A stretch of 64,000 nucleotides of DNA, taken from assembly GCA_003388555.1 (NCBI GenBank), contig QQVD01000006.1, forward strand, positions 1 to 64,000, given 5' to 3'. Position 1 is the first letter of the stretch. Each line of letters begins with the position of its first letter. Below the pieces are notes generated by a model. That model was given only the letters and a program-made list of their open reading frames with translations. It did no database searches and was not told where the DNA came from. This stretch comes from Acidobacteriota bacterium (GTDB taxonomy: Bacteria; Acidobacteriota; Thermoanaerobaculia; Multivoradales; Multivoraceae). Below are positions 1 through 60,262 of the stretch, piece by piece. Position numbers and translations under genes: made by a program.

Positions 1-366
1 AGCGGCTCGGCTCCCGGATTGTTCCTCTGTCGAGGCTGCAGGCTTCTCTTCACTTTGCGGCCCGTGTGCTCGCTCCCCGGCCATCGACTCTCGCCGACCT
101 CCAGGCTTTCGACGCCCCGCTCGGCCGGCGGGGTCTCCCCCGCGCGGCTGGGGCCTGCTACTCGGCGCACCGGCGCTTACCGAGGCGGGACTCTCACCCG
201 CTGGAAACACGCAGCGAGCAGACGAAGACCTCACAGGCCCATCATCGCCTGCTTCACGACGCACCACGGCCGCAGCGTAGCGCAAGCCCCGAGCTCGAGA
301 AGGATCTCGAGCGATCGCGCCCGGATCAGAAGCCCTCGCCGGTGTCCGTCGACCGTGGGCGCCGCA
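1..366. other. Stretch without a recognisable gene
   Basis: I see no convincing coding region here. Open frames on the plus strand give Arg/Pro/Ser-rich translations with no family resemblance and run antisense into the DUF4287 gene that ends at 367. No terminator with a U-run is visible after that gene. The left part may contain the end of a gene lying outside the window, but no frame supports this. Confidence 0.4.
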
Positions 367-31537: not shown

Positions 31538-31543
31538 ATCCTA
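31538..31543 (-). promoter_or_regulatory. Putative -10 box (TAGGAT), leaderless start
   Basis: On the minus strand TAGGAT is followed by six bases (CGGCGG) and the GTG of the small exported protein. This spacing fits a transcript beginning at the start codon. No -35 box is seen. Confidence 0.45.
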
Positions 31544-32785
31544 CCGTCCGTCAGCGTCTGGATCGCCCTGCGCGTGGGACTCGGCCTCGGGCGCCGTGGC
31601 CTCCTCCCAGGCCCGCTCGGCGGTCGCCGGAACGAAGTCGTCGAAGGCCCGCTCGCCGGCCTCGTCGACCGAGAGCAGCGCCCGCAGCGCCTTCATCTCC
31701 GGCCGTTCGAGCAGGCCCGCGCGCAGGCTCTCGAGGGAGCCGCCGGCGGAGAGCTCTTCGTCGACCGCGGCGAGGATGTCGGCGAACAGCCGGCGCAACC
31801 GTTCGAGCTGCTCGCCCGCTCCCGGCTCCGACTCTTCGGGCTGTGCGTCCTGCCCTGCCTCTGCGATCTGCTCGCGGTACACCGGACCGTGACCGGGCGC
31901 CAGCACCCTCGGCGCGAGCTCCGCCAACCGATCGAGCGTCGCGAGCCACTGCCGCGGATGGCCGTGGCCGCCGTAGGGCAGCGCGTCGACGACGTCGCCG
32001 GTGATCAGGATGCCGGGGCCGGGCAGCCAGAGGATCGTGTCGCCGTCGGTGTGGGCGGCGAAGTGCAGCAGCTCGACGCGCGGGGCCGCTCCGTCGCCGG
32101 CCGGCAGGGTCAGACGCTCGGTGTACAGCAGCGAGGGCGCAGTCAGCGACGTCTCGCGCAAGGCACGCTCGCGCTCCTCGGCGGCGGCGATCTGGGCGGC
32201 GAGGCGCTCGCGCCCCGCGGCGTCGAGAGCGCTGCCGTCGAGCCCCTCGCCGCGCCCGAGCTTCGCCCGCGCGTCCTCGATCGCCGCGGCGAGCCGGTCG
32301 GCGTCCTCCGCGAGCAGGTCGGCGGCGCGGCCCGGCACGTCCTGCTCGAGGGTGTCGTGGGCGACGATCGTCACCCCGGGATGGCGCGCCACCACCCTCT
32401 CGTTGCCGGCCACGTGGTCGACGTGCCAGTGGGTGTTGACCAGCCAGCGCACCGGCAGGTCCAGCGTCGCGTCGATCCAGTCGAGCAGCCGGTCGGTCGC
32501 CTCGCCGTCGGCCTGGGTGTCGACCAGCAGCAGCTCGCCGCCGAGGTCGACGACCACCGAGTTCGAGTCGGAGAAACGTCTCGCTGCCGGCTGCAAAGCC
32601 GCCCAGACGCCGTCGCCGAGCGGCTCGACGATCGGGAAGCGCTCTTCGGTGGCGGTTTCCGCTTCCGCCGCCTGCTGGGCGCTCGCAGCGACGGCCAGGA
32701 CCGCCAGCCCCAGCAGCAGCATCGCGGCGACCCGGAGAGTCCGTCGTGACCCGAGATGTCCGAGACGTCGCGGGAGGGCGTTCAT
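31541..32785 (-). CDS. Exported metallo-beta-lactamase superfamily hydrolase
   Basis: A 414-residue protein with an N-terminal signal helix (VAAMLLLGLAVLAVAASAQQ). The MBL fold shows FSDSNSVVVDLGGELLLVDT and the metal motif HWHVDH at 119-124 in NTHWHVDHVAGN. The later ligands are in HTDGDTILWLPGPGILITGD and LAPGHGPVY. It resembles the periplasmic quinoprotein-relay/beta-lactamase-like group; the substrate is unknown. About 60 helical residues follow the usual metal sites in the middle of the protein (EDADRLAAAIEDARAKLGRG), and a C-terminal helical extension runs from about 310 to 414. The ATG at 32785 gives a proper signal peptide. Its -10 region and ribosome site are not obvious, and the repeat-rich spacer begins directly upstream. 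Confidence 0.83.
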   Translation of the reverse strand: MNALPRRLGHLGSRRTLRVAAMLLLGLAVLAVAASAQQAAEAETATEERFPIVEPLGDGVWAALQPAARRFSDSNSVVVDLGGELLLVDTQADGEATDRLLDWIDATLDLPVRWLVNTHWHVDHVAGNERVVARHPGVTIVAHDTLEQDVPGRAADLLAEDADRLAAAIEDARAKLGRGEGLDGSALDAAGRERLAAQIAAAEERERALRETSLTAPSLLYTERLTLPAGDGAAPRVELLHFAAHTDGDTILWLPGPGILITGDVVDALPYGGHGHPRQWLATLDRLAELAPRVLAPGHGPVYREQIAEAGQDAQPEESEPGAGEQLERLRRLFADILAAVDEELSAGGSLESLRAGLLERPEMKALRALLSVDEAGERAFDDFVPATAERAWEEATAPEAESHAQGDPDADGR

Positions 32786-32999: not shown

Positions 33000-33030
33000 G
33001 TGGATCCCGGATCAAGTCCGGGATGACAGA
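33000..33030. repeat. REP-like palindrome
   Basis: ATCCCGGA (33004-33011) and TCCGGGAT (33017-33024) form a perfect 8-bp stem with loop TCAAG, within TGGATCCCGG to GGGATGACAG. It is the classic extragenic palindrome type (GTCATCCC to GGGATCC on the other strand) seen in many Proteobacteria. A related half-element, GTCATCCCCGCGCAGG, occurs at 59143-59166. Confidence 0.7.
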
Positions 33031-33115: not shown

Positions 33116-33295
33116 GCTCGCAGGCTCGCGCTGAGCGCTCGCTTCGGCGAAACAGCGTCACTGCTCGCAGGCTCGCACTGCCGCTCTTGCGGCTCAGCTC
33201 GCGCTGAGCGCTCGCTTCGGCGAAACAGCGTCACTGCTCGCAGGCTCGCACTGCCGCTCTTGCGGCTCAGCTCGCGCTGAGCGCTCGCTTCGGCG
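33116..33295. repeat. 73-bp tandem repeat, about 2.5 copies
   Basis: A 73-base unit starting GCTCGCAGGCTCGC is present in full at 33163-33235. A third copy starts at 33236 and is identical as far as 33295, where the match stops. A first copy at 33116-33162 lacks an internal stretch of about 26 bases. The unit contains short palindromes such as CCGCTCTTGCGG. Related fragments (GCGGCTCAGCTCGC, CGCTCGCTTCGGCG) lie at about 32910-32943. Open frames through it are antisense or low-complexity, and I do not call a gene. The rest of 32786-33458 holds no gene. Confidence 0.85.
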
Positions 33296-33330: not shown

Positions 33331-33470
33331 TGCCCCTCTTCCCTCTTCCCTTTGCCCCTCTTCCCTTTCCCTTCTCCCTCCTCCCTTTCCTCTTCCCTTG
33401 TCCCTTGTCCCTTGTCCCTCTCCCCAACCCCTGACCCCTGACCCCTAATCCCTAATCCCTAATCCCCCTC
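33331..33470 (-). repeat. G-run heptamer array at the 3' end of the PHP gene
   Basis: Read on the minus strand this is a chain of short G-run words: GGGATTA three times, GGGGTCA twice, GGGGTTG, then GGGACAA three times and a run of GGGAAGA, GGGAGAA and GGGAAA words. The PHP gene's TAG stop falls inside the first GATTAGGG. The same words make up the arrays at 51055-51115 and 58926-59120. Successive G-runs could form G-quadruplexes in DNA or in the mRNA 3' end. Confidence 0.85.
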
Positions 33471-34709
33471 CGCCTCCGCCGTCGTCTCACCGCTCAGCAC
33501 CAGCCGCGGGTGCTTCTCGGGCTCGACCAGGGCGCTGAGCACCTCGAGCTCGAGCTCGAAGCGCGGCGAGCGGGCACCGGTCTTCAGCTGCAGGGTGGTC
33601 TCGGCCAGGGGCTCGAACACGACCAGCGGGCCGCCGCTGTAGAGCAGGTCGCTGTCGGCGGTGCGGGCGGTGATCCGGGCGCTGCCGCGGTTCCTGACCG
33701 TGACGTCGAGCACCGCGCCGCGACGGTAGTGGGCCGACTCGACCACCAGCGAAGCGGCGAGCAGTGGCGCCAGGTGCTCCTCGCGACCGACCAGCAGGTC
33801 GTTCATCCAGGCCACGGTGCGGCCGGCACGCAGCGCCTGCTCGATCCCTGCCTCGCTGCGCTCGGCGGCGAACACCAGGGTCACCGGCCGGTGCCCGCCC
33901 TGCGGGATCTCGTACTGCCAGTCGACCAGTCCGTGGATGTCGGAGGTGCCGAGGATGGTTAGATCGTGCTGCAGCGCGATCGCCAGTGCCTCGCTGGAGA
34001 AGGTGAGGTCGTTGGTCACCTCGATCCCGTGCAGCAGCCCCTCCTCGATGAGTTGCTCGTGGATCGGCTCGAGACGAGCGACGCCGTCGTCGCGCTGGCC
34101 GACCCAGTGCGGGTGGTTGAGGAAGTTGAAACCGCCCTGGCGCGCCGCCTCGCGGAAGACCTCGAGTGGGTCGTCGCGCAGCAGCGGGTTGGAGTCCTCG
34201 AGGAAGATCGCGTTGGCGTGGCCGACCGGCATGCGTCTGGTGATCTCGGAGCCGTGGATCACCAGCAGGTCCGCACCGGCCTTCGCTGCCTCCTCGACCG
34301 CGATGAGATAGGCCCGGTTGCGATCGGGGTGCGGGATGTCGTCGGCGTGAGGCTGGTACTCGAGGTGCTCGGTGATCGCCACCGCGTCGAGCCCGTCGCG
34401 CACCGCCTCCTCGACGCGCAGATCGGGCCACACGCTACCGTCGGAGAAGACGCTGTGGGTGTGCAGGTCGACGACCAGCGTCAGTGCGCCCGGGACGTCG
34501 GGAAAGCGGATCTGGCGGTCGCCGTGGCCACCGGGATGGGCCGACGCCGCGACGTCGACCAGCAACGCCGACGCGCAGAGCACCGCCGGCGCCGCGAGCT
34601 TCGCCGCGACCATTCGGAGTCGTCGCAGGATCGGTGCGTGCGGCCGCCGGGCACAGACCGGCGGGAGATCCGTGGCAGTCGTGGTCGGTCTCGGCATCGA
34701 AGGGTGCAT
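33459..34709 (-). CDS. Exported PHP-domain phosphoesterase-like protein
   Basis: A 416-residue protein. An N-terminal basic region and hydrophobic helix (AAKLAAPAVLCASALLVDVA, about 35-54) target it for export. The PHP domain has VVDLHTHSVFSDGS (His83, His85), AITEHLEYQPHADD, VIHGSEITRR, FNFLNHPHW and GTSDIHG, which supply the usual metal ligands. The PHP superfamily includes trinuclear-metal phosphoesterases; this exported CehA/McbA-like subtype has no firm substrate. A beta-rich tail (YRRGAVLDVTVRNRGSARIT) follows. The ATG at 34709 has AGGGAG 6 bases upstream. The last residues, AEAEGD, are encoded where the heptamer array starts, so the repeat has reached the coding end. Confidence 0.85.
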   Translation of the reverse strand: MHPSMPRPTTTATDLPPVCARRPHAPILRRLRMVAAKLAAPAVLCASALLVDVAASAHPGGHGDRQIRFPDVPGALTLVVDLHTHSVFSDGSVWPDLRVEEAVRDGLDAVAITEHLEYQPHADDIPHPDRNRAYLIAVEEAAKAGADLLVIHGSEITRRMPVGHANAIFLEDSNPLLRDDPLEVFREAARQGGFNFLNHPHWVGQRDDGVARLEPIHEQLIEEGLLHGIEVTNDLTFSSEALAIALQHDLTILGTSDIHGLVDWQYEIPQGGHRPVTLVFAAERSEAGIEQALRAGRTVAWMNDLLVGREEHLAPLLAASLVVESAHYRRGAVLDVTVRNRGSARITARTADSDLLYSGGPLVVFEPLAETTLQLKTGARSPRFELELEVLSALVEPEKHPRLVLSGETTAEAEGD

Positions 34710-49231: not shown

Positions 49232-50503
49232 TCAGGCCGCGCGCGCCGCCCGCTCGAGCGCCTGCTCGAGGTCCCCGACCAGGTCGGAGCGATCCTCGAC
49301 CCCGATGGCGAAGCGCAGCAGCCGTTCGTCGATGCCCGCATCGCGCCGGGCCTGGGGCGACATCGAGGCATGGGTCATCGTCGCGGGGTGCGAGACCAGC
49401 GACTCGACGCCGCCCAGCGACTCGGCGAGCGAGAAGCACTCCAGCGATTCGACGAAGGTGCGCACGGCCTCCTCGCCGCCGCGCAGGCGCGCCGCGACGA
49501 TGGCGCCGAAGCCCTGCTGCTGGCGGCGTGCGAGCTGGTGCTGCGGATGCTGCTCGAGGCCGGGGTAGATCGCCTCGGCGACCGCCGGATGGCGAGCGAG
49601 CAGCTCCGCCACCGCGCCGGCGTTCTCCTCGTGGGCCCGCCAGCGCAGCGGCAGGGTGCGCAGCCCGCGCAGGGTCATGTAGCTGTCGAACGGGGCGCCG
49701 GTGAGACCGAGGCAGTTGGCCCAGAAGCGCAGCTCCTCGCCGCCGGCGGCGCTCGCCGCCACCACCGCGCCGCCGACCACGTCGCTGTGCCCGTTGATCG
49801 ACTTGGTGGTCGAGTGCACCACCAGATCGGCGCCGAGCGCGATCGGCTGCTGCAGCAGCGGCGAGAGGAAGGTGTTGTCGACGACCACCAGGGCGCCCAC
49901 CTCGTGCGCCGCCTGCGCCGTGCGCTCGATGTCGACCACGCGCAGCAGCGGGTTGCTCGGCGTCTCGATCCACACCAGCCGCGGACAGCGGGCGCGGATC
50001 CAGCGCGGCAGGTCGTTCGCGGTCTGGTCGCGGAAGGCGACGCGGAAGTTGCCGCGCTCGGCCAACGTGGTGAACAGACGGTGGCTGCCGCCGTAGCAGT
50101 CGTGGGGCGCCAGCAGCAGGTCGCGCGGCCGCAGCAGCTGGCAGACCAGCGTGATCGCCGCCATGCCGGAGGCGGTGACCACCGCGTCGCGGCCGCCCTC
50201 GAGGTCGGCGAGCGCCGCCGCCAGCGCGTCGCGGGTGGGGTTGCCGCTGCGTGTGTAGTCGTACTGCCGAGGTCGGGCGAAGCCCTCGAAGGTGAAGTTC
50301 GACGAGAGCACCAGCGGCGGCATCACCGCGCCGTGCTGGCGATCGCTCTCGAGCGCCGCGCGTGCGGTACGAGTCGCGGGATGGCGGCGGCGGACCAGGC
50401 GCGCGGTGCCGACGGGGCGATCGCCGCGTTCACAGCCGTCGTCGTGCGTGCTGTCGAACTGATCGACGGTGTCGACGGTGTCGACGAGGGTTTCGGCGGA
50501 CAT
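49232..50503 (-). CDS. metB: Cystathionine gamma-synthase (PLP-dependent trans-sulfuration enzyme)
   Basis: A 423-residue enzyme of the Cys/Met metabolism PLP family, close in sequence to enterobacterial MetB (QYDYTRSGNPTRDALAAALA, LLAPHDCYGGSHRLF, TPSNPLLRVVDI, VVDNTFLSPLLQQPIALGAD, FSLAESLGGVESLVSHPATM). The PLP Lys is in VVHSTTKSINGHSDV. It joins an activated homoserine to cysteine to make cystathionine, in methionine synthesis; a lyase activity cannot be excluded. The N-terminus has an extra segment of about 55 residues with VDTVDTVD encoded by a 9-base repeat. The ATG at 50503 has AAAGGAG upstream. The leader holds a SAM-I riboswitch, so expression should fall when SAM is high. Confidence 0.93.
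   Translation of the reverse strand: MSAETLVDTVDTVDQFDSTHDDGCERGDRPVGTARLVRRRHPATRTARAALESDRQHGAVMPPLVLSSNFTFEGFARPRQYDYTRSGNPTRDALAAALADLEGGRDAVVTASGMAAITLVCQLLRPRDLLLAPHDCYGGSHRLFTTLAERGNFRVAFRDQTANDLPRWIRARCPRLVWIETPSNPLLRVVDIERTAQAAHEVGALVVVDNTFLSPLLQQPIALGADLVVHSTTKSINGHSDVVGGAVVAASAAGGEELRFWANCLGLTGAPFDSYMTLRGLRTLPLRWRAHEENAGAVAELLARHPAVAEAIYPGLEQHPQHQLARRQQQGFGAIVAARLRGGEEAVRTFVESLECFSLAESLGGVESLVSHPATMTHASMSPQARRDAGIDERLLRFAIGVEDRSDLVGDLEQALERAARAA
50463..50487. repeat. 9-bp repeat (TCGACGGTG) inside the metB N-terminus
   Basis: Two full units and a partial third (50463-50487) encode VDTVDTVD near residue 10 of MetB. The unit is close to the GTGTCGACC unit of the module 1 kinase at 7515-7541. 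Confidence 0.7.
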
Positions 50504-50626: not shown

Positions 50627-50666
50627 GAGCCGCGACCCGGAGTGTCGCGACGCGCTCGGCTCCTCG

Positions 50667-50785
50667 ACTCATCTCTCGCAGCCCGTGGCGGGCTCCGCAG
50701 GAGTTGGCACCATCCCGCGGCGCGGTCGCCTTCGGGTGGTTGCCCCGGCGTCCAAGGGCCTGTCCCTCAGCCGGTCTCGATGAGT
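50667..50785 (-). promoter_or_regulatory. SAM-I (S-box) riboswitch upstream of metB
   Basis: Read on the minus strand, P1 is closed by ACTCATC (50779-50785) and GATGAGT (50667-50673). Between them the S-box landmarks occur in order: GAGGGACAGGCCC, then GGGGCAACC, then GGTGCCAACTCCTGC, then an internal CGAGAGATGAGT end. These match the conserved SAM-I core (GAGGGAYTGGCCC, CNGCAACC, GGTGCYAANTCCNGC). The aptamer is 119 bases and starts about 20 bases after a promoter-like TAGCCT. SAM binding should reduce metB expression. Confidence 0.88.
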
Positions 50786-50807
50786 CCCGCTCGTGGCGGG
50801 CGCGAGC

Positions 50808-50880: not shown

Positions 50881-51031
50881 ACACCCCCACCTCGGTCCTC
50901 CCCCTGAAGGGGGAGGAGGGAGAAGTGCCGCTGGGTTGGATCGCTGCTGAGGCCTCGGGTCGACCGAGGAGCTGGAAGGTGGCGGGGTGTGGCTTCCTCC
51001 CCCTTCAGGGGGAGGACTGAGGTGGGGGTAT
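50881..51031. repeat. Inverted pair of REP-like palindromes
   Basis: A roughly 36-base element at 50881-50917 is repeated in inverted orientation at 50995-51031 with one or two differences. Each copy holds the palindrome CCTCCCCCTGAAGGGGGAGG or its reverse complement (9-bp stem, 2-base loop), next to CCCCCACCTC. The 77-base middle part has no recognised feature. The pair lies between the divergent metB leader and the M50-like gene. The full element could be a non-autonomous MITE/BIME-like unit. Confidence 0.8.
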
Positions 51032-51054
51032 CCCAGACGTCCGGCTCGCTGCCC

Positions 51055-51115
51055 AGACCCCCAACCTCCGACCCCCCAACCCCTGACCCCTAGCCCCTAG
51101 CCCCTAGCCCCAGCT
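51055..51115 (-). repeat. G-run heptamer array, divergent intergenic region
   Basis: Read on the minus strand this is GGGGCTA three times, GGGGTCA, GGGGTTG, then GGGGGGTCGGAGGTTGGGGG. It shares the GGGGTCA and GGGGTTG words with the array at 33331-33470 and the reverse-oriented one at 58926-59120. The remaining part of 50837-51204 holds no gene. A TACAGT hexamer at 51158-51163 may be the -10 box for the rightward gene. Confidence 0.8.
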
Positions 51116-51204: not shown

Positions 51205-52335
51205 ATGACCGCTCCCCGCGACAGCCCCCCGCCGCCAGACGGACCGGCGCTCGCCACTCGCTGCCCGCGCTGCGAGTACGACTCGCCGCCGGCGATCGGC
51301 GCCTTCGCCGAGTGCCCGCGCTGCGGGGTGGTGGTCGCCAAGTTCGTGCGCGCCCCGCCGACGGCGACCGAAGCCGCGACGGAGCCGCCGGATCCCGGCC
51401 CAGATCGCGAAGGACCGCAGACCGATGGCGATCTCGATCTGGCGACAGTGGCGGACGGCGGCACCCTCTACGACCCGGACCAGCACGCCGCCCCGGAGAC
51501 GGCGGAGGACCGCGCGCCGGCCATCCCGGTGCGCTTCTCGCAGCGGGTGCGCGAAGCGAAGAACCGCGATCTGGTGCACGGCTTCGACCGCGAGGTGCAA
51601 TGGGGCGCCGCGATCGGAGCGCTCCTCTGGCTGCTGCCGCCGACCCGCGCTCTCGGCTCCTACCTCAACGTGCTGGTGCACGAGATCGGCCACACCGCCA
51701 CCTACTGGCTGTTCGGCTACCTGACCATCCCGTCGTTCGACTTCGTCAACCACGGCGGGTTGTCGGTGGCGTTCGCGCGGCTCGAGACACTCACCCTGGT
51801 CGTCGTGGCACTGCTCGGTTTCTGGATCTGGCAGGCGCGCGGCCACCGCCGCATCCAGGTCTTCGCGGCCTCGATCCTGGTGCTCTACTCGCTGCTCAAC
51901 TGGACCCAGGGACACCAGCACCTCTTCGACGCGATGGGGCACGGCGGTGAGCTGGTGTTCGCCACCATCTTCCTGCAGCGGGCGCTGGCCCCAGCCCACC
52001 GTTTCGACACCCTGGAGCGGCCGCTGTGGGCCGCGGCGGGAGTCTTCGTCACCCTGCAGCTGATCGCCTTCTCCTGGACCCTGGCGCTCAGCGCGAGCCG
52101 CCAGAGCGCGTACGCCCAGGGCATGCGCGGCTTCCGCCACGACCTGCTGCGGATCGCCGACTGGCTCGGCCTGCCGCTGCCGCTGGTCGCCGCCAGCCTC
52201 GGGCTGCTCGCCCTGCTGCCGCCGCTGGTGGCGTTCTGGGTGCACCGGCACGGCGAGAGCTGGCGCCAGGCCTTCATCGACCTGCTCGCCGGTCCCCAGT
52301 CGCACGGCGACGCCGCCCCCCGCCAAGCCCGCTGA
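51205..52335 (+). CDS. Membrane zinc metalloprotease-like protein (M50-type) with zinc-ribbon N-terminus
   Basis: A 376-residue protein. The N-terminus has two CxxC pairs (RCPRCEYDSPPAIGAFAECP, then CPRCGVVVAKF), a zinc-ribbon. After a low-complexity linker come several membrane helices. The first carries HEIGH in VLVHEIGHTATYWLFGYLTI, the HExxH motif of M50-type intramembrane proteases. Further helices are LTLVVVALLGFWIWQ, VFAASILVLYSLLNWTQGHQ, LWAAAGVFVTLQLIAFSWTL and VAASLGLLALLPPLVAFWV. I do not see the second M50 motif (NxxPG/LDG), so activity is uncertain. The conserved TQGHQHLFDAMGHGGELVF may supply other metal ligands. The ATG at 51205 has no strong ribosome-binding site. Confidence 0.7.
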   Translation: MTAPRDSPPPPDGPALATRCPRCEYDSPPAIGAFAECPRCGVVVAKFVRAPPTATEAATEPPDPGPDREGPQTDGDLDLATVADGGTLYDPDQHAAPETAEDRAPAIPVRFSQRVREAKNRDLVHGFDREVQWGAAIGALLWLLPPTRALGSYLNVLVHEIGHTATYWLFGYLTIPSFDFVNHGGLSVAFARLETLTLVVVALLGFWIWQARGHRRIQVFAASILVLYSLLNWTQGHQHLFDAMGHGGELVFATIFLQRALAPAHRFDTLERPLWAAAGVFVTLQLIAFSWTLALSASRQSAYAQGMRGFRHDLLRIADWLGLPLPLVAASLGLLALLPPLVAFWVHRHGESWRQAFIDLLAGPQSHGDAAPRQAR

Positions 52336-57209: not shown

Positions 57210-58925
57210 TTGAGCGTGCAGACCTGGACCTACCTGCTGGTGGGGATCACCTTCGCGCTCTACATCGGCATCGCGATCTGGAGCCGCGTCGCCTCGACCG
57301 CCGGCTTCTACGTCGCCGGCCGCGGGGTGCCGGCGGTGGCCAACGGCATGGCCACCGGCGCCGACTGGATGAGCGCCGCGTCGTTCCTGTCGATGGCCGG
57401 CCTGATCTCGTTCATGGGCTACTCCGGCGCCATCTACCTGATGGGCTGGACCGGCGGCTACGTGCTGCTGGCGTTGCTGCTGGCGCCGTATCTGCGCAAG
57501 TACGGCAAGTTCACCACCTCCGAGTTCGTCGGCGACCGCTACCACTCCGACGCCGCCCGGCTGGTCGCCGCCGCCTGCACCATCTTCGTCTCCTTCACCT
57601 ACATCGCCGGCCAGATGCGCGGCGTCGGCGTGGTCTTCTCGCGCTTCCTCGAGGTCGACGTCGACCGCGGCGTCTACATCGGCACCGCGCTGGTCTTCTT
57701 CTACGCCGTGATGGGCGGCATGAAGGGGATCACCTACACCCAGGTGGCGCAGTACTGCGTGCTGATCGTCGCCTACCTGGTGCCGGCGATCGCCATCTCG
57801 TCGCAGATGACCGGCAATCCGATTCCCCAGCTCGGCTTCGGCGGCACCATGCAGTCCGGGCAGGCCGGCACCCCGGCAGGCGTGTTCCTGCTCGAGACCC
57901 TAGACCAGCTGCACCGCGAGCTCGGCTTCCCCGAGTACACGGCGGCCTGGGTGGCGGGCAAGAAGTCGATGATCGACGTCTTCGCCATCACCCTGGCGCT
58001 GATGGTCGGCACCGCAGGCCTGCCGCACGTGCTGATCCGCTTCTACACCGTGCGCAGCGCCCGCGCCGCGCGCTGGTCGGCGCTCTGGGCGCTGGTGTTC
58101 ATCGGCCTGCTCTACACCACCGCGCCCGCGGTGGCCGCGTTCGCGCGGGTCAACTTGATCCAGACCCTCGACGGCAAGGCCTACAGCGAGCTGCCGCAGT
58201 GGTTCTCGAGCTGGGAGACCACCGGGCTGCTGGTGTTCGAGGACAAGGACGGCGACGGCGTGCTGCGCTACTCGGCGGGCGCCGACAACGAGCTCACCGT
58301 CGACCGCGACATCATGGTGCTGGCCAACCCCGAGATCGCCGAGCTGCCGGCGTGGGTGGTGGCCCTGGTGGCGGCCGGAGGCCTGGCCGCGGCGCTGTCG
58401 ACCGCGGCGGGGCTGCTGCTGGTGATCGCCTCGGCGATCTCGCACGACGTCTGCAAGTCGGTGCTGCTGCCGAAGCTGTCGGCCGAGCGCGAGCTGACCA
58501 TCGCCCGCTGCGCCGCCGGCGTCGCGGTGGTCATCGCCGCCTACTTCGGCGTCAACCCTCCCGGCTTCGTCGCCCAGGTCGTCGCCTTCGCCTTCGGGCT
58601 GGCGGCGTCGAGCTTCTTCCCGGTGCTGGTGCTCGGCATCTTCACCAAGACGACCACCAAGGCCGGCGCCATCTCCGGCATGCTCACCGGCATCCTCTTC
58701 ACCGCCTCCTACATCGTCTGGTTCCGCCTACTCCAGCCCGACGCCGGCAGCGACGCGTGGCTCTTCGGCATCTCGCCCGAGGGCATCGGCGCCGTCGGCA
58801 TGCTGCTCAACTTCGCCGTCGCCCTCGTCGTCTCGCGCTTCACCGAGCCGCCGCCGCAGGAGGTGCAGGACCTGGTGGAGGAGATCCGCCTGCCGCGCGC
58901 CGCGCCGGCAGCGGCGGAGCATTGA
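57210..58925 (+). CDS. Sodium:solute symporter (SSS family, VC_2705/ActP-like)
   Basis: A 571-residue integral membrane transporter of about 13 helices. Landmarks are STAGFYVAGRGVPAVANGMA, ATGADWMSAASFLSMAGLIS, the Na+ site helix KYGKFTTSEFVGDRYHSDAA and FFYAVMGGMKGITYTQVAQY. GTAGLPHVLIRFYTVRSARA and VVAFAFGLAASSFFPVLVLG follow. A hydrophilic loop of about 60 residues (WETTGLLVFEDKDGDGVLRY) contains a DKDGDG calcium-like motif, usual in this subgroup. It acts with the DUF4212 protein. The start is TTG at 57210 with GGAGG 8 bases upstream. The end is followed directly by the G-run heptamer array. Confidence 0.92.
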   Translation: MSVQTWTYLLVGITFALYIGIAIWSRVASTAGFYVAGRGVPAVANGMATGADWMSAASFLSMAGLISFMGYSGAIYLMGWTGGYVLLALLLAPYLRKYGKFTTSEFVGDRYHSDAARLVAAACTIFVSFTYIAGQMRGVGVVFSRFLEVDVDRGVYIGTALVFFYAVMGGMKGITYTQVAQYCVLIVAYLVPAIAISSQMTGNPIPQLGFGGTMQSGQAGTPAGVFLLETLDQLHRELGFPEYTAAWVAGKKSMIDVFAITLALMVGTAGLPHVLIRFYTVRSARAARWSALWALVFIGLLYTTAPAVAAFARVNLIQTLDGKAYSELPQWFSSWETTGLLVFEDKDGDGVLRYSAGADNELTVDRDIMVLANPEIAELPAWVVALVAAGGLAAALSTAAGLLLVIASAISHDVCKSVLLPKLSAERELTIARCAAGVAVVIAAYFGVNPPGFVAQVVAFAFGLAASSFFPVLVLGIFTKTTTKAGAISGMLTGILFTASYIVWFRLLQPDAGSDAWLFGISPEGIGAVGMLLNFAVALVVSRFTEPPPQEVQDLVEEIRLPRAAPAAAEH

Positions 58926-59120
58926 GGGAAGGGACGAGGGAAAGGCGGAGCGGAGTGGTCAGGGGTCAGGGAAGGGACAAGGGAAGAGGGAAAGGGAGAA
59001 GGAAGGGAGAGAGACAGGGGTTGGGGATTTGGGATTAGGGAAAAGGGAAAGGGAGAAGCGGAGCGGAAGAGGTCAGGGGGTAGGGGTCAGGGGAAGAAGG
59101 GGGTCAGGGGAATCAGAGGT
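58926..59120 (+). repeat. G-run heptamer array after the symporter gene
   Basis: Starting at the symporter stop, the plus strand is a purine-rich chain of G-run words: GGGAAGG, GGGACGA, GGGGTCA, GGGACAA, GGGAAGA, GGGAGAA, then GGGGTTG, GGGATTTGGGATTAGGG, and later GGGGGTAGGGGTCAGGGG. The words are the same as in the array at 33331-33470. In both places the G-rich strand is the sense strand of the gene just upstream and begins at its stop codon. The rest of 58926-59245 has a REP-like half-element (59143-59166) and no gene. Confidence 0.85.
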
Positions 59121-59245: not shown

Positions 59246-60262
59246 CTACCCTGCGAAGCCGTTCGGGTTCTGGCTCTGCCAGCGCCAGGAGTCGGCGCAC
59301 ATCTCGTCGAGCGAGCGCTCGGCGCGCCATCCGAGCTCGCGCTCGGCGCGCGTCGCGTCGGCCCAGATCGCCGCGGCGTCGCCGGACCGGCGCGGCGCGA
59401 TCTCGTAGGGCAGCTGGCGCCCCACGGCGCGCGACGCCGCGGCGACCACCTCGAGCACGCTGTGGCCGCGGCCGGTGCCGAGGTTGAAGGCGCGCCAGCC
59501 CTCGATCCGCTCGAGACCCTCGAGCGCCGCCAGGTGACCGCGCGCCAGGTCGACGACGTGGATGTAGTCGCGCACCCCGGTGCCGTCGGGGGTCGGGTAG
59601 TCGTCGCCGAACACCCGCAGGCGCTCGCGCCGGCCGACCGCGACCTGCATCAGGTAGGGCATCAGATTGTTCGGTACGCCGAGCGGGTCCTCGCCGATCT
59701 GGCCGCTGGGGTGGGCGCCGACCGGGTTGAAGTAGCGCAGCAGCGCGATCTGCCAGCCGGGCTCCGCCGCCGCGACGTCGCGCAGCATCTCCTCGATCAC
59801 CAGCTTCGTACGCCCGTAGGGATTCGCGGCGCCCAGCGGTGCATTCTCGTCGAGCGGGGGATGGTCGGGATCGCCGTAGACCGTGCACGAGGACGAGAAG
59901 ACGATGCGTCGACACCCCGCCTGGCGCATCGCCTCGAGCAGCACCAGCGTGCCGTGCACGTTGTTCGAGTAGTAGGCCAGCGGGATCTCGGTCGACTCGC
60001 CGACCGCCTTGAGCCCGGCGAAGTGCACCACCGCGTCGACGGGGTGGTCACGCAGCAGCCCGTCGAGCAGGGCCCGGTCGCGCAGGTCGCCGCGCACGAA
60101 AGCGAGGGGCCGGCCGCTGAGCTCCTCGACCCGCTCGAGCGCCCGCGCCGAGCTGTTGCAGAGGTTGTCGAGCACCACCACCTGGTGGCCGCCGGCGAGC
60201 AGCTCGACGCAGGTGTGGCTGCCGATGAAGCCGGCGCCGCCGGTGACTAGTATCGTTCCCAC
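59246..60262 (-). CDS. galE: UDP-glucose 4-epimerase
   Basis: A 338-residue epimerase, the normal GalE length. The NAD site is ILVTGGAGFIGSHTCVELL. Further features are VVVLDNLCNSS, VVHFAGLKAVGEST, the catalytic Ser in FSSSCTVYGDPDHPPLDE and the YxxxK pair in NPYGRTKLVIEE. The LLRYFNPVGAHPSGQIGEDP and RVFGDDYPTPDGTGVRDYIH blocks bind the sugar nucleotide. It interconverts UDP-glucose and UDP-galactose for surface polysaccharide or galactose use. The GTG at 60262 gives the canonical N-terminus; the 27 codons before it are Arg-rich and not conserved. GAGAGAG upstream is a possible ribosome site. Confidence 0.96.
   Translation of the reverse strand: MGTILVTGGAGFIGSHTCVELLAGGHQVVVLDNLCNSSARALERVEELSGRPLAFVRGDLRDRALLDGLLRDHPVDAVVHFAGLKAVGESTEIPLAYYSNNVHGTLVLLEAMRQAGCRRIVFSSSCTVYGDPDHPPLDENAPLGAANPYGRTKLVIEEMLRDVAAAEPGWQIALLRYFNPVGAHPSGQIGEDPLGVPNNLMPYLMQVAVGRRERLRVFGDDYPTPDGTGVRDYIHVVDLARGHLAALEGLERIEGWRAFNLGTGRGHSVLEVVAAASRAVGRQLPYEIAPRRSGDAAAIWADATRAERELGWRAERSLDEMCADSWRWQSQNPNGFAG

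What the first reader, a model, noticed from the sequence alone, without database searches (positions are those of the whole stretch)
33331..33470. Shared G-run heptamer arrays at three unlinked intergenic loci
Three spacers (33331-33470 minus, 51055-51115 minus, 58926-59120 plus) are assembled from one vocabulary of mostly 7-base words: GGGATTA, GGGGTCA, GGGGTTG, GGGACAA, GGGAAGA, GGGGCTA. Word order differs between loci, so these are not copies of one element but mosaics. At two loci the G-rich strand is the sense strand of the upstream gene and begins at its stop codon; at the PHP gene the TAG stop is itself part of GATTAGGG. They recall the short tandemly repeated heptamers known from heterocystous cyanobacteria, but I know of no description in this lineage. 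The mRNA 3' ends could fold into G-quadruplexes that shape termination or decay.
Basis: partly seen in the sequence, partly recalled or inferred. Interest (0 to 1): 0.75.

Follow-up and report, generated by a model that had tools for sequence, protein, structure and literature searches.

The report
Polar G-run heptamer arrays between genes
This bacterium fills about 3% of its larger gaps between genes with stretches of seven-letter G-rich words that always point away from the neighbouring gene; it is a new member of a known but unexplained class of bacterial repeats, and the strict direction rule gives a handle on what they do.

Summary
The three arrays are real: 15 exact 4-run, period-7 matches in the window against 0.07 expected. 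They belong to a genome-wide set, with period 7 far above other periods and 1426 overlapping 5-run matches in 6.8 Mb. The genome is probably Thermoanaerobaculia-like (Acidobacteriota). In 2.06 Mb, 39 of 40 array arms have the G-rich strand reading away from the nearest ORF into the gap: sense after stop codons (21 arms) but antisense before start codons (18). All 11 paired arms are G(+) then G(-). Half of the arms start within 16 nt of the ORF (5 expected). Arms of a pair are no more alike than unrelated arms, which argues against terminal repeats or hairpins. Family relatives examined lack arrays at these loci. Elsewhere in the phylum each genome has its own dialect; at one orthologous gap three species of one genus carry different heptamers. 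Rehm et al. 2015 described the class in Xanthomonas and Nostoc, so this is a new member of a known kind. Function and cause of polarity remain unproven.

The parts
33333..33468 (-). G-run heptamer array (19 runs in two blocks, 33333-33385 and 33395-33468), G strand on minus, starting inside the last codons of the PHP gene
51052..51111 (-). G-run heptamer array, G strand on minus, 93 nt upstream of the + gene at 51205 (divergent gap; antisense to that gene)
58926..59116 (+). G-run array, partly heptameric, starting directly after the TGA stop of the symporter gene
33459..34613 (-). PHP-domain protein; its TAG stop (33459-33461) is part of the array words
   Evidence: own gene call; Pfam PHP E 5.2e-07
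31541..32722 (-). metallo-beta-lactamase-fold protein, other flank of the first gap
49232..50503 (-). Cys/Met metabolism PLP enzyme, other flank of the second gap
51205..52335 (+). protein without a Pfam match, nearest ORF to the second array
57216..58925 (+). sodium:solute symporter; the third array follows its stop
59246..60262 (-). NAD-dependent epimerase (GalE-like), convergent neighbour of the symporter

Best explanation
The arrays are fast-evolving intergenic heptamer satellites of the kind known from Nostoc and Xanthomonas. They grow by slipped duplication of 7- and 14-nt units, spread a genome-specific vocabulary among gaps, and expand up to, and sometimes a few codons into, the edge of the neighbouring gene. 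Their direction is fixed: the G-run strand always reads away from the flanking ORF. In RNA terms, G-rich repeats occur only in 3' trailers and C-rich, G-poor repeats only in 5' leaders. I think this direction is kept mainly by selection on RNA: G runs in a leader would mimic ribosome-binding sites or fold into quadruplexes, whereas after a stop codon they are tolerated or useful through polymerase pausing, 3'-end protection, or arrest of leftover transcription. Shown: the arrays, the period, the polarity, the abutment, the 14-mer duplication signature, the dialects and the absence from relatives. Inferred: slippage as the growth process, spread between gaps, and RNA-level selection as the cause of polarity.
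For: Period 7 stands out: 37 chains against 0-9 for periods other than 7 and 14, and 0 in Markov shuffles. Words repeat at lag 2 (133 observed, 72 +/- 6 expected) and cluster in blocks (86 class switches, 151 expected), which is the signature of tandem duplication. Polarity 39/40, and 11/11 pairs in the same order. 20/40 arms start within 16 nt of the ORF, 5.0 +/- 2.1 expected. TAG stops 10/19 against 16.8% genome-wide, p 4e-4, and GGG directly after the stop 13/19 against 3.9%, so arrays reach into ORF ends. A halo of excess purine fades over about 150 nt from 0.68 to 0.49, background 0.505, as expected of decaying older units. Array-less gaps show no skew. Relatives have short array-free gaps at orthologous loci.
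Against: Selection against G-rich leaders does not by itself explain why convergent gaps, which contain no leader, show the same strict polarity (all their arms read inward). A shared dialect at unlinked gaps needs some copying between loci that I did not demonstrate. In other Acidobacteriota the polarity is weaker: by my count 14 of 21 arms, with 4 of the 7 exceptions in gaps of about 100 nt or less. There are no RNA data.
Confidence: 0.45

Rival explanations
1. Directional transcription boundary. Polymerase leaving an ORF makes G-rich RNA (quadruplex or R-loop, pausing and termination). Polymerase entering from the gap makes C-rich, G-poor RNA that can load Rho, which stops antisense read-through into the neighbour while translated sense entry is protected.
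For: One polarity fits convergent, tandem and divergent gaps. Convergent gaps are enriched among array gaps (11 of 29 against 125 of 969; odds ratio 4.4, p 5e-4). Strong predicted G4 on the G strand and almost no structure on the C strand. In Xanthomonas, transcripts start or stop more often at G4-capable repeats (PMC4692102).
Against: Only about 3% of gaps carry arrays (29 of 969). Close relatives do without. TCAGTNN heptamers with the same polarity are not G-run quadruplex formers. At least one array lies beyond an intrinsic-terminator-like hairpin (C1 112234).
Confidence: 0.25
2. UTR pairing code: 3' trailers carry the word and 5' leaders its complement, so mRNAs of one genome can pair with each other or circularise. 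This would select for a shared dialect and for the polarity.
For: The polarity is exactly this in RNA terms. Start-edge and stop-edge vocabularies are alike (cosine 0.79, within the permutation range 0.86 +/- 0.05). Dialects differ between genomes.
Against: A common origin of the words predicts the same vocabulary. No RNA interaction data. Few genes carry arrays at both ends.
Confidence: 0.08
3. Telomere-like end healing: 3' ends at breaks in gaps receive word repeats and are then joined, giving head-to-head arms.
For: G-strand geometry and + then - order are those of head-to-head joined telomeres. The words resemble telomeric repeats.
Against: Unique core sequence remains between arms. Starts pile up at ORF edges, which random breaks do not predict. 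Arms of one gap share no more words than others.
Confidence: 0.06
4. Mobile inverted-repeat element (MITE- or REP-like) whose ends are the arrays.
For: Paired inverted arms at many gaps, absent from relatives.
Against: Arms of a pair are no more alike than unrelated arms (0.254 against 0.249); no common core is apparent on inspection of the gaps; orthologous gaps in one genus carry different words.
Confidence: 0.04

Closest known systems
GGGAATC / GGGGA(C/T)T quadruplex-forming heptamer repeats of Xanthomonas and Nostoc (Rehm et al. 2015, PMC4692102)
   Same: G-run heptamers, intergenic, near stops on the sense strand and near starts on the antisense strand, frequent convergent pairs, variable unit number
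   Different: Here a mosaic of about a dozen words rather than one consensus, 5 to 36 runs per arm (I required at least 5), almost no exception to the polarity, and another phylum
TAACTGA direct repeats of Beggiatoaceae, cyanobacteria and Bacteroidetes (MacGregor 2015, PMC4679880)
   Same: Heptamer period; forward upstream of starts and in some cases reverse after stops, that is TCAGTTA reading away from the ORF; relatives have shorter gaps without repeats
   Different: Not G-rich, no quadruplex, mostly at start codons; explained there as translational regulation
Short tandemly repeated heptamers of heterocystous cyanobacteria (STRR, Calothrix)
   Same: Tandem heptanucleotides dispersed between genes
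   Different: Known to me only through the citation in PMC4692102; the original paper was not read

Membership tests
Rehm-type G-run heptamer repeats | tandem heptamers with a GGG tract at period 7 | tested here: met
Rehm-type G-run heptamer repeats | mostly intergenic | tested here: met
   66 heptamer-like clusters intergenic against 19 in genes, although gaps of 50 nt or more make up only 0.27 of 2.06 Mb
Rehm-type G-run heptamer repeats | close after stop on sense strand or before start on antisense strand | tested here: met
   39 of 40 arms
Rehm-type G-run heptamer repeats | convergent inverted pairs | tested here: met
   11 of 29 array gaps, all + then -
Rehm-type G-run heptamer repeats | consensus GGGNATC or GGGGA(C/T)T | tested here: not met
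   main words are GGGGTTG, GGGGTCA, GGGACAA, GGGAAGA, GGGAAAA; the claim is therefore 'same kind of repeat', not 'the same repeat'
Rehm-type G-run heptamer repeats | preference for four units | tested here: inconclusive
   I required at least 5 runs per cluster; arms range from 5 to 36
Rehm-type G-run heptamer repeats | G4 formation in vitro | not testable with these tools
   only predicted
MITE/REP mobile element | similar terminal arms or a common core across copies | tested here: not met
   arms; core judged by inspection only:

The most novel reading that the evidence does not exclude
Polar heptamer arrays are one general class of bacterial intergenic element. What is conserved is the 7-nt period and the direction (the word strand reads away from the flanking gene), not the sequence or the quadruplex. 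Vocabularies such as GGGNNNN and TCAGTNN are interchangeable dialects, replaced at the same gap during evolution and installed by a directional process, or kept as a pairing code, that has not been described.
Probability: 0.2. Interest if true: 0.8.

Novelty: new member of a known kind. Interest (0 to 1): 0.5.

Why it matters
Heptamer repeats between genes have been reported from unrelated bacteria, each time with a different local explanation (quadruplexes, translation control). A direction rule that holds at start and stop edges alike, and that seems to survive a change of words, means that neither explanation is sufficient. It turns an old curiosity into a testable question: what process or constraint knows where a gene ends?

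Tried and rejected
The first survey pattern was swamped by poly-G and replaced. Rejected: inverted-repeat or hairpin element (arms not alike); general strand skew of gaps (none without arrays); sense-strand 3'-UTR rule (18 of 40 arms antisense at starts); replichore-oriented motifs such as KOPS (both orientations in the same gap); a word gradient from ORF to gap centre (16 to 8, not significant); known RNA families (no Rfam hit at the arrays). Assembly artefact is unlikely because similar arrays occur in many independent genomes, but read coverage is not available. In one search the reversed control pattern is contaminated in G121, because TCAGTAG repeats also contain TGACTAC on the other strand. 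A literature look-up of Mrazek 2007 failed, as the paper is not held.

Full report
Observation. Exact four-run, period-7 matches number 15 in the window, against a mean of 0.07 and a maximum of 1 in 100 dinucleotide shuffles. The window lies in contig 10 of a 6.8 Mb, 74-contig genome. The closest named relative of the symporter protein is an uncultured Thermoanaerobaculia bacterium (82% identity), so the genome is probably Acidobacteriota. That assignment rests on one protein.

Genome-wide. In the first 1.26 Mb that I read, GGG chains of four or more steps number 37 at period 7, 24 at period 14 and 0 to 7 at the other periods tested, and none at period 7 in order-2 Markov sequence. The five-run pattern has 1426 overlapping hits in the whole genome.

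Position and direction. I called genes with a codon-usage caller of my own on 2.06 Mb and merged G-run clusters of at least five runs into 40 arms in 29 gaps, leaving out one GGGGCC period-6 cluster. In 39 arms the G-rich strand reads away from the nearer ORF into the gap. The one exception is the second arm of a pair near the middle of its gap. All 11 gaps with both strands have G(+) first and G(-) second. 21 conforming arms are at stop edges, where the G strand is sense, and 18 at start edges, where it is antisense. The start-edge cases include recognisable divergent or tandem genes, some with plausible ribosome-binding sites next to the array, for example C9 81355, C1 308130, C4 103978 and C3 193229 (the gene identities there are my reading of the sequences, not searched). 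Convergent gaps are over-represented (11 of 29 against 125 of 969, p 5e-4). Half of the arms (20) start within 16 nt of the ORF they face away from, 5.0 +/- 2.1 expected. At 19 stop codons with an array within 40 nt, 10 are TAG against 16.8% in the genome (p 4e-4), and 13 are followed at once by GGG against 3.9%. At the PHP gene, and at C2 177301 and C1 58549, the stop codon itself lies in array sequence. Gaps without arrays show no such skew. A halo of excess purine fades over about 150 nt from the inner end of the arms; part of the first 20-40 nt of it is expected from how array ends are defined.

Internal structure. Words cluster in blocks and repeat at lag 2 more than lag 1, so 14-nt units have been duplicated as well as 7-nt units. 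The two arms of a gap share no more words than arms of different gaps, which argues against terminal inverted repeats, cruciforms or a hairpin as the selected feature. Start-edge and stop-edge arms use the same vocabulary within sampling error.

Comparison. In genomes of the same family (G042, G043, G044, G051), one of the same order and two more distant named ones, the gaps next to the orthologues that I could read have no arrays, and several are very short. The genus holds only this genome, so unit-number change at orthologous loci could not be followed here. Across 396 Acidobacteriota genomes, 54 have at least one five-run match, very unevenly and with genome-specific words: for example GGGACTG/GGGAATA in G134, GGGATCA/GGGATTA in G137, GGGAACA in several genomes of family f24. 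In four species of one f24 genus, the gapA-pgk region carries GGGATCA-type arms in G233, TCAGTGA-type words in G396 and TCAGTTG-type words in G078, with the complement at the other edge of the gap (judged by eye). TCAGTNN arrays are common in some of these genomes (G188 62 hits against 2 for the reversed pattern, G154 58 against 0) and absent from the present one. The polarity also appears in other genomes but less strictly: by my own count, 14 of 21 arms, with four of seven exceptions in gaps of about 100 nt or less.

What is known. Rehm et al. (PMC4692102) described GGGAATC and GGGGA(C/T)T repeats in Xanthomonas and Nostoc: intergenic, near stops on the coding strand or near starts on the non-coding strand, often as convergent pairs, forming quadruplexes in vitro, function unknown. 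MacGregor (PMC4679880) described TAACTGA repeats mostly forward before start codons and in some cases reversed near or after a stop, which is the same polarity for TCAGTTA. I found no paper on this in Acidobacteria, but the library holds only open papers.

Mechanism. The arrays are best explained as heptamer satellites that grow by duplication and press against gene edges. The polarity must come from selection or from a directional process. I favour selection on RNA consequences, because the G strand would put ribosome-site-like and quadruplex-forming runs into leaders (predicted energies). This does not fully explain convergent gaps, and the TCAGTNN case suggests that quadruplexes are not the whole reason. 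The boundary model is the main rival.

Limits. The gene caller is homemade; start codons are less certain than stops. The sample is 30% of the genome. Arms were defined by a five-run threshold. No expression data exist for this organism.

Noticed in passing
window 50666-50786 (-): SAM riboswitch (Rfam RF00162, 77 bits) upstream of the Cys/Met PLP enzyme gene, in the same gap as the second array.
   Followed up: no
window 50-203 (-): Group II intron D1-D4 match (RF02003) at the window's left end.
   Followed up: no
window 33124-33295: Perfect 2.4-copy tandem repeat of a 73-nt unit rich in GCTCGCTTCGGCG-like motifs, next to the first array.
   Followed up: no
window about 50893-50920 and 50995-51020; also G000 C2 about 83300-83700: Repeated palindromes of the type CTCCCCCTTCAGGGGGAGG, and GGATCCCGGATCAAGTCCGGGATGA near 33002, in gaps; REP-like.
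   Followed up: no
G121 (genome search handle), e.g. C1:23027-23157 and C15:7-116: An 8.4 Mb Acidobacteriota genome with more than 1000 overlapping TCAGTAG/TCAGTGG heptamer matches plus GGGATGA arrays.
   Followed up: partly
G000 C8:5380-5454 and C2:176880-176948: Purine-rich heptamer arrays without the usual GGG words (CGGAGAA/CGCAGAA and GGCAGAA) in the same genome, perhaps decayed or alternative words.
   Followed up: no
G000 C1 end (326206-326272 of 326386) and C4 end (268527 of 268672): Arrays close to contig ends suggest that they may break the assembly and that the true number is higher.
   Followed up: partly
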